Positions 22,607-58,394 of a stretch of DNA of 64,000 nt are shown here, piece by piece (the stretch's first letter is position 1; every line of letters begins with the position of its first letter). The DNA lies in the NCBI RefSeq assembly GCF_030068615.1, contig NZ_JASJOC010000004.1:372001-436000 (forward strand), in the 5' to 3' direction. Source of the DNA: Halostagnicola sp. A-GB9-2 (GTDB lineage: Archaea; Halobacteriota; Halobacteria; Halobacteriales; Natrialbaceae). Made by a program: the position numbers and the translations under genes. The notes under the pieces were generated by a model. The model was not told the origin of the DNA. It did no database searches and saw only the letters and a list, made by a program, of their open reading frames with translations.

Positions 22607-22681
22607 GGGCACGTAGCTCAGTCTGGATAGAGCGTCGGACTTCTAATCCGACGGTCGTGGGTTCGAATCCCATCGTGCCCG
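22607..22681 (+). tRNA. tRNA-Arg (anticodon TCT)
   Basis: Cloverleaf reads 7-bp acceptor stem GGGCACG/CGTGCCC, D-arm GCTC-AGTCTGGATA-GAGC, anticodon arm TCGGA-CTTCTAA-TCCGA with anticodon TCT, and T-arm GTGGG-TTCGAAT-CCCAT. Discriminator G at 22681. CCA is not encoded. No intron. It reads AGA codons. Confidence 0.95.
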
Positions 22682-22789
22682 TGATTCTGCGACGAACGGA
22701 CGTGAGGAGCGAATCACTCACCGAGATGGGATTCGAATCAGGCTGAGGTTCTGCGCTTCGCGCAGGTTCTCAGCCGTGGTTTGAATCCC
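22682..22789 (+). repeat. tRNA-Arg trailer element: anti-T-arm, nested hairpin, T-arm copy
   Basis: Immediately 3' of the tRNA a TGATTC...GAATCA hairpin (22682-22716) is followed by GATGGGATTCGAA (22725-22737), the exact reverse complement of 13 nt of this tRNA's T-arm (22662-22674). Next is a symmetrical hairpin, GGCTGAG-GTT-CTGCGC-TTC-GCGCAG-GTT-CTCAGCC (22741-22775), and then GTGGTTTGAATCCC (22776-22789), a near-copy of the T-arm in direct orientation. The same layout follows tRNA-Ile at 55.7 kb. Confidence 0.65.
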
Positions 22790-55466: not shown

Positions 55467-55649
55467 CGCGGTGCTCGAGTGATCCACTCTGGACAGCGTT
55501 CGTCTCGGCCAGCCGCGCCAGTATCCTCCGTCCCCAATTACGTTGGTCTCGATTTTTGTAAAACGACCATCTCTTGGACAGACACCCGACCTCCCCACAT
55601 TCGAGTTAGATACTATGATCGGAGCTCGAGGAATTGCTCATCGCAAGAA

Positions 55650-55770
55650 GTGAGCCAGCTCGAATTTTAACCACGCCCGAGAACCTGCGCGTTGTGCAGA
55701 ACCTCGGTCTAATTCAAATCCGAGTTGGATTTCATACTCACGGCTCGCGGGTTTGCTCGCCGCAAAAGTA
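55650..55770 (-). repeat. tRNA-Ile trailer element: anti-T-arm, nested hairpin, degenerate T-arm copy
   Basis: Read in tRNA orientation: a TACT...AGTA hairpin directly after the tRNA (55735-55770), then CCAACTCGGATTTGAA (plus-strand 55713-55728), the exact reverse complement of 16 nt of the tRNA T-arm/acceptor; then the nested hairpin CCGAG-GTT-CTGCAC-AAC-GCGCAG-GTT-CTCGG (55677-55707); then a degraded direct T-arm copy (55650-55676). It matches the element behind tRNA-Arg (24 of 27 hairpin bases). It fills most of the 304-bp gap after gvpO. Confidence 0.65.
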
Positions 55771-55844
55771 TGGGCCAACTCGGATTTGAACCGAGAACCT
55801 CCACCTTATCAGAGTGGCGCTCGACCTAATTGAGCTATTGGCCC
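55771..55844 (-). tRNA. tRNA-Ile (anticodon GAT)
   Basis: Minus-strand cloverleaf: acceptor GGGCCAA/TTGGCCC, D-arm AGCTC...GAGC, anticodon arm CCACT-CTGATAA-GGTGG with anticodon GAT, T-arm CTCGG-TTCAAAT-CCGAG, discriminator A at 55771. No intron and no encoded CCA. Confidence 0.95.
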
Positions 55845-56660: not shown

Positions 56661-58313
56661 ATGGACGACGTTACGCGAGTCGAGTGGCGCGAATGGGGAC
56701 AAGCGGCCTTCGACGAGGCGGCGGAGTCAGATATCCCCGTACTGCTTTCGCTCACCGCGACGTGGTGCGATCACTGCCACGAGATGGACGAGCAAACGTA
56801 CGCGGAGCCGCGGATCGCCGCGAACATCAACGATCGATTCGTACCGATTCGGGTCGACGCGGACCGGCGACCTCGAGTACGCGACCGATACAATATGGGC
56901 GGCTTTCCCTCGACGGTCTTTCTCGCCCCCGACGGCGCGCTGTTGACGGGAGCGGGCTATCTCGGACCCGACGGCATGCGCCAGGTTCTCGATAGCGTCG
57001 GGACGATGTGGGAGGCCAAAGGCGAGGGAGCGAGCCGAATCCCCCGACCGCTTCGGGAGGACGAGCCGCCAGCCGGAACGCTCTCGAGTGGTATCGAAGA
57101 GTCGATGCTCGGACAGCTTACGGAGAACTACGACGAGGTCGCCGGCGGCTGGGGAACCGAGCCGAAGTTCCCGCTCCCGGACGCTCTCGAGTTCGCGCTC
57201 AAACGCGACCGCGAGATGGCGCTTCGCTCGTTCGACGCGGTCAGCGCGAACTTGCTCGACGAGTACGAGGGCGGATTCTACCGATTCGGGGCCGAAGCAG
57301 ACTGGGGCGGGATTCAACACGAGAAGCTACTCGACTCGAACGCCGCGCTCGTTCGCGCGTTTTCGAACGCCTACCTCTCGACGGGTCGCGAGGAGTATCA
57401 GAAACCGGCATCCCGAACGATCGAGTACCTCACGACGACGCTCTGGAACGCCGACGCCGACGCCTTCGCGAATAGTCAGGCCCCCGGCGAGGGCGGCTCC
57501 TACACGCTCGAGGCGAGCGACCGGGAGGGAGCCGACGCTCCGCCGGTCGATCCAGGCGTCTTCGCCGGTCCGAACGGGTTGGCGGTCGAGGCCCTGCTCA
57601 CCTACTATTCGTATACGGACGACGAGCGCGCCCGTCGATACGCCGAACGCGCACTCGAGACGCTCCGGACCGACCTCCTCGAGGACGGCGTCGCGACGCA
57701 CAGACTCCCCGAAGCCGACGAAAGCGCGGAATCACTCGAGCGGACACCGCTGTTGTTGACGCAGGCTCGAACGCTCCGGGCCGCGCTCGCGGGTGCGAGC
57801 GTTCTCGGCGCGGAAACGCTCGATGATGCGCGCGCCGTCGCCGACGTCACGATCGATCGGCTTCGGGACGGCGACTCGTTCATCGATGCGCCAGCCCGAG
57901 GAACGGGTCTGCTCGACCGGTCACTTCGGCCGCTCGACGCGAACGTCGCGTTCGCGGACGCGCTCGTCGATCTCGCAGTACTGACCGGCGAGGAGCGGTA
58001 TCGAACCGTCGCACGAGAGACCCTCGAGGACTTTGCCGGCGCGAGCGATCGGTTCGGCGTCCAGATCGCGAAGTACGGCTCCGCCGCCGCACGAATGCTC
58101 GACGATCCGCTCGTCGTTCGCGTCGGAACGCAAGCGGGCTCCGATCTCCACCGAGCCGCGTTCCGCGTTGCGGATCACGAAAAAGTCGTTGTTCCGAACG
58201 CCGCGGACGGGGTCGATCGGGGAACGGCTCGAGTCGAACGGGGCGAACGGGTCTCGGAACCCGCTGAAACTCCAGAGAAGTTGAGCGAGCAGGTTCGAAG
58301 CCTACTCGAGTGA
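56661..58313 (+). CDS. YyaL/DUF255-like thioredoxin-domain protein
   Basis: 550 residues. N-terminal thioredoxin-like domain with C36-x2-C39 in 'TATWCDHCHEM' and the cis-Pro loop 'MGGFPSTVFL', joined to an (alpha/alpha)6-barrel like N-acylglucosamine epimerases ('EYEGGFYRFGAEADWGGIQH', 'KLLDSNAALVRAFSNAY'). Family usual length about 600-700. The role is not established; a thiol-sensing or oxidative-protein-folding function is proposed for relatives. Divergent from fxsA with a shared 120-bp region. Confidence 0.85.
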   Translation: MDDVTRVEWREWGQAAFDEAAESDIPVLLSLTATWCDHCHEMDEQTYAEPRIAANINDRFVPIRVDADRRPRVRDRYNMGGFPSTVFLAPDGALLTGAGYLGPDGMRQVLDSVGTMWEAKGEGASRIPRPLREDEPPAGTLSSGIEESMLGQLTENYDEVAGGWGTEPKFPLPDALEFALKRDREMALRSFDAVSANLLDEYEGGFYRFGAEADWGGIQHEKLLDSNAALVRAFSNAYLSTGREEYQKPASRTIEYLTTTLWNADADAFANSQAPGEGGSYTLEASDREGADAPPVDPGVFAGPNGLAVEALLTYYSYTDDERARRYAERALETLRTDLLEDGVATHRLPEADESAESLERTPLLLTQARTLRAALAGASVLGAETLDDARAVADVTIDRLRDGDSFIDAPARGTGLLDRSLRPLDANVAFADALVDLAVLTGEERYRTVARETLEDFAGASDRFGVQIAKYGSAAARMLDDPLVVRVGTQAGSDLHRAAFRVADHEKVVVPNAADGVDRGTARVERGERVSEPAETPEKLSEQVRSLLE

Positions 58314-58394
58314 TACAGCGAACGAACGCCGCTGAATCGATATCTGATCAAACTATCGTAGCGTTTATGACCTTCGAGTTGGTTGCGTATCCAT

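What the first reader, a model, noticed from the sequence alone, without database searches (positions are those of the whole stretch)
55650..55844. tRNA-Ile trailer has the same design, with its own 16-nt T-arm complement
The complement (16 nt, exact) is specific to this tRNA, while the nested hairpin is shared with tRNA-Arg at 24 of 27 positions and in the same orientation relative to the tRNA. Two independent tRNAs with matching layout and tRNA-specific antisense argue for function or for a mobile mechanism that copies the tRNA 3' end.
Basis: partly seen in the sequence, partly recalled or inferred. Interest (0 to 1): 0.7.

Follow-up and report, generated by a model that had tools for sequence, protein, structure and literature searches.

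The report
Palindrome cassettes copying tRNA gene ends
Salt-loving archaea carry, behind about half of their tRNA genes, small non-coding cassettes that copy that very gene's end once forwards and once backwards around a shared hairpin; they come and go between related species like mobile elements, and I found no earlier description of them.

Summary
The tRNA-Ile trailer (minus strand) reads T-H1-T'-H2-T-H1-T'. T is the tRNA 3' end (positions 54-73), T' its antisense (16 nt exact here), and H1 and H2 are hairpins. Complete T'-H2-T units stand behind 21 of 41 tRNAs of this genome. A stringent motif occurs in about half of the haloarchaeal genomes sampled and in none of about 310 other Halobacteriota genomes. 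Arrays reach five units.

T and T' are specific to their own tRNA (0 of 10,000 permutations reach the observed score), only downstream, and not in a Methanosarcina-like control. T' tracks tRNA positions 54-65; T is copied over 54-73. H2 is shared between different tRNAs, has compensatory changes, and folds better on the sense strand.

Congeners show empty sites (Tyr, Thr, His): a unit was inserted exactly at the tRNA 3' end with T (in His also H1) repeated directly. H2 is replaced between congeners. The phage and plasmid collections hold no copy; integrase elements only displace units.

Best reading: a small non-autonomous palindromic cassette, BIME-like in layout, whose arms are copied from its target. 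The enzyme and copying step are unknown. A functional pre-tRNA trailer RNA is the main rival.

The parts
55771..55844 (-). tRNA-Ile(GAT) gene
   Evidence: ARAGORN and Rfam RF00005 68.6 bits
55771..55790 (-). T: tRNA 3' end TTCAAATCCGAGTTGGCCCA (positions 54-73), the segment that is copied
   Evidence: sequence; T copies in 267 units start at TTC and run to the discriminator base
55729..55770 (-). H1: trailer hairpin directly after the tRNA (TACTTTTGCGGCGAGCAAACCCGCGAGCCGTGAGTATGAAAT)
   Evidence: sequence; H1 partly conserved at orthologous tRNAs of congeners (0.55 vs 0.41; Ile orthologs)
55713..55728 (-). T': exact 16-nt antisense of the tRNA T-arm/acceptor 3' strand (CCAACTCGGATTTGAA)
55671..55712 (-). 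H2: hairpin core (stem-loop about 55677-55707, GAGGTTCTGC...GCAGGTTCTC type), shared with tRNA-Arg 24/27
   Evidence: fold
55651..55670 (-). second, decayed T copy (TTAAAATTCGAGCTGGCTCA, 16/20 identical to the tRNA end)
55610..55650 (-). second, decayed H1
   Evidence: sequence
55598..55611 (-). second, decayed T' (TCTAACTCGAATGT)
   Evidence: sequence
22607..22681 (+). tRNA-Arg(TCT) gene with the companion array
22682..22724 (+). H1 of the tRNA-Arg trailer
22725..22737 (+). T' of the tRNA-Arg trailer (GATGGGATTCGAA, 13 nt exact antisense)
22738..22779 (+). H2 of the tRNA-Arg trailer (hairpin 22741-22775)
22780..22789 (+). short decayed T copy (TTTGAATCCC) of tRNA-Arg

Best explanation
A haloarchaeal family of small (about 75-140 nt) non-coding palindromic cassettes that insert at, or are generated at, the 3' ends of tRNA genes. 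Each event leaves tRNA-T-H1-[T'-H2]-T-H1. H2 is the shared hairpin core. T is a direct copy of tRNA positions 54-73. T' is an inverted copy of at least positions 54-65. SHOWN: the anatomy, tRNA specificity of both arms, precise empty sites, turnover of H2 between congeners, tandem growth to five units, restriction of the stringent motif to haloarchaea, absence of that core from the phage and plasmid collections, and displacement by integrase elements. INFERRED: the cassette spreads as a folded single strand (sense-strand hairpin), like REP/BIME-type repeats; its arms are copied from the target at insertion by fold-back synthesis (T-H1-T'-H2 is formally a dumbbell: the T/T' duplex capped by hairpins H1 and H2); later recombination between the 20-nt T repeats amplifies, swaps and deletes units. 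The responsible enzyme is unknown.
For: Permutation tests in G000, G001, G003 and G086; no signal upstream of tRNAs or in a Methanosarcina-like genome. Empty/filled sites: Tyr (G003 vs G000, z 6.5) and His (G000 vs G001 z 10.2, vs G003 z 7.0); Thr(TGT); in His the locus-specific H1 is duplicated with T on both sides of T'-H2. H2 of orthologous first units is 0.48 alike against 0.42 for unrelated tRNAs, while leaders are 0.79 alike. Where T copy and tRNA differ at positions 54-64, T' pairs with the tRNA in 52 cases and with the T copy in 3, as expected if both arms were copied from the tRNA. Arrays of up to 5 units with exact T copies but different H1/H2. 83 class I matches in named genomes, all haloarchaea: 75 within 1 kb downstream of a tRNA in the same orientation; the others lie at locus edges or, in L087, behind an insertion in tRNA-Val. 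No core in phages or plasmids.
Against: No transposase or recombinase was identified, and no longer relative with cargo was found (H2 halves are always close together). Outside tRNAs only one candidate locus was found (aspS 3' end, L379, with imperfect arms), so free mobility is not demonstrated. H1 is partly inherited with the locus, and class IV-like H2 recurs at tRNA-Ile in distant families, which suits long-standing function as well. T' is usually limited to positions 54-65 while T covers 54-73, which simple full-length fold-back copying does not explain unless the rest decays. Detection thresholds favour well-kept T-loop positions.
Confidence: 0.5

Rival explanations
1. Functional trailer RNA: T'-H2-T and T-H1-T' are alternative hairpins in read-through pre-tRNA that control 3' processing, termination or T-arm folding; T' is a deliberate antisense of the tRNA.
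For: Sense strand folds better in 223 of 248 units with RNA parameters and 217 of 248 with DNA parameters. Class I has an invariant U-G pair, an almost invariant bulged G and conserved A20/G34/A35 (tandem G-A) across 39 sequences, and 58 double-changed cells against 19 in shuffles. G-U is kept about twice as often as A-C between T' and T. T' persists at some tRNAs where H2 or T is lost.
Against: Congeners lack the units at the same tRNA (Tyr, Thr TGT, His, Ala, Phe) or carry a different H2 class; half of the tRNAs have none; T' does not co-vary with its hairpin partner T (3 vs 52); no reason for exact T copies or for arrays of up to five.
Confidence: 0.2
2. Attachment-site remnants: tyrosine integrases that use the tRNA 3' end as attB left T copies behind, and the hairpins are leftovers of attP arms.
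For: T has the size and place of an att core; integrase elements sit exactly between tRNA and H1 at Pro, Lys, Ala and Val loci (L049, L381, L383, L384; an insertion also at L087), and the L049 integrase matches PF00589. Reviews report att cores at archaeal tRNA 3' ends (PMC8371274).
Against: The L049 element examined lacks H1/H2 at its ends; the units carry no gene; H2 is shared between different tRNAs whereas att cores must match one tRNA; integrase sites do not predict an inverted T' inside; no core in phage or plasmid records.
Confidence: 0.12
3. No mobility: palindrome-driven replication template switching at tRNA genes (inverted triplication with hairpin junctions) plus quasi-palindrome correction and gene conversion.
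For: T-H1-T'-H2-T is formally an inverted triplication with palindromic junctions; the His locus duplicates its own H1; two-unit blocks are tandemly duplicated in G086 Ser.
Against: H2 sequences such as GAATCAGGGAG...CGACCGTGGTTC are shared by many different tRNAs and many haloarchaeal genera, which independent template switching would not give; restriction to haloarchaea.
Confidence: 0.15

Closest known systems
REP/BIME elements (bacterial interspersed mosaic elements, RAYT-associated)
   Same: Short palindromes in alternating orientation, tandem arrays, intergenic, at 3' ends of genes, strand-specific imperfect hairpins
   Different: Arms here are copied from the neighbouring tRNA; tied to tRNA genes; no RAYT identified; the papers read name no haloarchaeal case (PMC12306157, PMC3733652)
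MITE, PATE and SMR small mobile elements of Haloquadratum (PMC3119063)
   Same: Small non-autonomous haloarchaeal elements with palindromes
   Different: By that paper's table those have element-specific ends; here the ends are target-derived, with a 20-nt direct repeat of the tRNA end plus an inverted copy inside
Integrase att-site duplications in tRNA genes (SNJ2-like integrases, PMC8371274)
   Same: Direct repeat of the tRNA 3' end downstream of the intact gene
   Different: No integrase, no cargo, inverted copy, shared hairpin, many tRNAs in one genome
Inverted triplication by template switching (ODIRA-like; from memory)
   Same: Direct-inverted-direct order with palindromic junctions
   Different: A conserved junction sequence (H2) shared between loci

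Membership tests
REP/BIME | Alternating palindromic units in tandem array | tested here: met
   T-H1-T'-H2 repeated up to 5 times
REP/BIME | GTAG/CGTC tag and RAYT (Y1) transposase partner | not tested
   GTGG or GTAG precedes T in several classes, but no transposase was searched for
REP/BIME | Dispersed among intergenic regions regardless of gene type | tested here: not met
   Strong model matches in four genomes are tRNA-linked or displaced from a tRNA, except L379
MITE | Element-specific terminal inverted repeats flanked by a target duplication | tested here: not met
   Direct T repeats flank the insert, but T' follows the tRNA, not the element
Integrase attachment-site duplication | Element encodes, or derives from one encoding, a tyrosine integrase and lies between the repeats | tested here: not met
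   Units are about 75-140 nt and non-coding; real integrase elements displace them
Integrase attachment-site duplication | Direct repeat of the tRNA 3' end downstream of an intact tRNA | tested here: met
   T copy identity 0.79-1.00 over positions 54-73 in 267 units
Known Rfam RNA family | Match above gathering score in the trailer | tested here: not met
   Only the two tRNAs are reported in the window

The most novel reading that the evidence does not exclude
A new kind of mobile or self-propagating nucleic acid in archaea: a hairpin core without genes that, on arrival at a tRNA gene, copies the gene's own 3' end in both orientations, so that every new unit carries target-specific homology arms (a dumbbell-like, rolling-hairpin-like intermediate).
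Probability: 0.35. Interest if true: 0.9.

Novelty: new variant of a known kind. Interest (0 to 1): 0.72.

Why it matters
If true, many haloarchaeal genomes carry an undescribed element class that writes target-specific arms at the most conserved genes they have. That would point to an unknown copying or recombination activity in archaea, explain clutter behind haloarchaeal tRNA genes, and offer a natural system to study how palindromes amplify and how tRNA loci become integration hot spots. Even if the function is RNA processing, it would be a clade-wide, tRNA-specific antisense trailer system that can be tested directly in laboratory strains.

Tried and rejected
Chance: rejected by shuffles, permutations and the upstream control. 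General archaeal feature: rejected by the phylum scan and the Methanosarcina-like control. Cargo-bearing version split inside H2: halves are always close together in 1.38 Mb of held loci. Carriage by viruses or plasmids: one viral-contig match, which is host DNA beside tRNA-Glu; no core in phage or plasmid records (one chance Streptomyces phage hit). Splicing-endonuclease (BHB) substrate: H. volcanii endonuclease strictly needs hBHBh' (PMC7714728) and the H2 folds show no such motif (by eye). Full-length antisense as a rule: only positions 54-65 pair above background; Thr(CGT) of G003 is a 20/20 exception (by eye). In situ duplication of H1 as a rule: average H1-before/H1-after similarity does not exceed permutation (9.32 vs maximum 9.64); it holds clearly in His, Leu(TAG) and Gly(GCC) of G003. 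Literature searches found no description, but subscription journals are not held.

Full report
WHAT IS THERE. On the minus strand the tRNA-Ile(GAT) gene (55771-55844) is followed by H1 (55729-55770), T' (55713-55728; CCAACTCGGATTTGAA, the exact complement of TTCAAATCCGAGTTGG in the tRNA), H2 (55671-55712), a decayed sense copy of the tRNA 3' end (T, 55651-55670), a decayed second H1 and a decayed second T'. The longest antisense match seen by chance in such a trailer is 11 nt; 16 is observed.

GENOME-WIDE. With all tRNAs of this genome oriented, complete T'-H2-T units are found behind 21 of 41 tRNAs here, 13 of 42 in G001 and 17 of 42 in G003, which are of the same genus. Scores of the 300 nt downstream against the own tRNA end exceed every one of 10,000 permutations, both sense and antisense, in all three genomes and in a compact genome of another family, G086. 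The 300 nt upstream show nothing, nor does a Methanosarcina-like genome. In G086 arrays reach five units with T copies 19-20 of 20 identical to the tRNA.

DISTRIBUTION. A stringent core pattern (GAATCAGR..GACCGTGGTTYRAATC) hits only haloarchaea among the named genomes returned (capped list). In a phylum draw it hits 46 of 393 genomes, all among the roughly 80 of the same order, while about 310 others and the reversed control give none. Of 83 matches in named genomes, 75 lie within 1 kb downstream of a tRNA in the same orientation with T equal or nearly equal to that tRNA's end. The rest lie at locus edges or behind an insertion; L087, for example, is displaced 3.1 kb from tRNA-Val. A covariance model of the core searched in four genomes gives hits that are almost all tRNA-linked. 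The apparent orphans inspected are displaced units at the far end of elements inserted in tRNA-Lys, -Ala and -Val (integrase C-termini read by eye in the first two), or lie by tRNAs outside my list, with one exception at the 3' end of aspS.

THE ARMS. Over 267 units from 308 tRNAs, T is identical to the tRNA from position 54 to 73 (0.79-1.00 per position). T' pairs with positions 54-65 and falls to background beyond. Pairing is tRNA-specific where tRNAs differ (positions 57, 62-65). Where T and tRNA differ at positions 54-64, T' agrees with the tRNA in 52 cases and with T in 3. So T' does not co-evolve with its hairpin partner; both look like copies of the tRNA, or T' is kept as antisense to the tRNA.

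THE CORE. H2 falls into several classes that share a helix continuing from T'/T. In the class I set of 39 equal-length units, 95% of cells pair, 58 cells have both sides changed against 19 in shuffles, and sliding the partner destroys pairing. The U-G pair 14-41 and residues A20, G34 and A35 do not vary. The sense strand folds better than the antisense in 223 of 248 units with RNA parameters and 217 of 248 with DNA parameters (similarly). This strand asymmetry says that a folded sense strand matters, but cannot separate RNA from single-stranded DNA.

DYNAMICS. In tRNA-Tyr, G000 has the unit and then CCTTTCCCGTCGAACTGTGGCA, while G003 has CCTTTCTCCCCGTCGAATCGTGGCA directly after the tRNA. tRNA-Thr(TGT) and tRNA-His give the same picture. 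In tRNA-His of G003 the locus's own H1 stands on both sides, so the event duplicated T-H1 and put T'-H2 between. At tRNA-Ile, G001 has two full units, G003 a contracted array and G004 an exchanged first H1. First-unit H2 at orthologous tRNAs is barely more alike than at unrelated tRNAs (0.48 vs 0.42), while 36-nt leaders are 0.79 alike. Turnover is therefore fast, yet each new unit again carries the arms of its host tRNA.

MECHANISM. I take the units to be small non-autonomous cassettes with target-copied arms (confidence 0.5). The anatomy T-H1-T'-H2 equals a dumbbell (T/T' duplex closed by two hairpins). Fold-back synthesis primed at H1 and running out at a nick before position 54 would give T' ending exactly at the complement of T54, as seen; this step is inference. 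Recombination between the 20-nt T repeats would give amplification, swaps and loss. Rivals are a functional trailer RNA (0.2), template switching without mobility (0.15) and attachment-site remnants (0.12); evidence for each is given in its field.

KNOWN OR NEW. The unit resembles BIMEs in layout, MITEs in size and att-site duplications in its T repeat, and fails a defining feature of each that I could test. I found no description in the papers held; subscription literature could not be searched. I call it a new variant of the small palindromic mobile repeats, with a 0.35 chance that it is a new kind.

Noticed in passing
L379 (G000:C12:597955-598264), outside the window: Exact 155-bp tandem duplication just past the stop codon of an aspS gene (Pfam tRNA-synt_2), containing a class I-like hairpin core flanked by a copy and an imperfect inverted copy of the gene's own 3' end: the only non-tRNA candidate for the same cassette.
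   Followed up: partly
L049 (G000:C33:445351-457230), outside the window: About 12 kb element with a tyrosine integrase (PF00589), an Orc1/Cdc6-like gene by eye and ABC transporter genes in the 3' end of tRNA-Pro(TGG); it displaced a cassette to its right end (L004).
   Followed up: partly
window 58239-58332 minus: ARAGORN calls a tRNA-Arg(TCG) that Rfam does not support; probably a false call.
   Followed up: no
G000:C33:348604-350282, outside the window: Three tRNA-Asp(GTC) genes in tandem at about 800-bp spacing, with cassettes in their trailers.
   Followed up: no
L319-L348 (G086), e.g. trailers of tRNA-Gly, -Leu: A second palindrome family (CCCACTTTTTCCGAGGGGCTGC..GCAGCCCCTCGCAAAAACTTGGGG) recurs in tRNA trailers of this genome.
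   Followed up: no
H1 and H2 in many trailers: H1 cores often read GCGAAC..GTGAGC and many H2 apices GCGAACGAAGTGAGC, a YGAR/YGAR tandem G-A motif with small loops; known stability of such motifs in DNA and RNA is from memory and was not tested.
   Followed up: no
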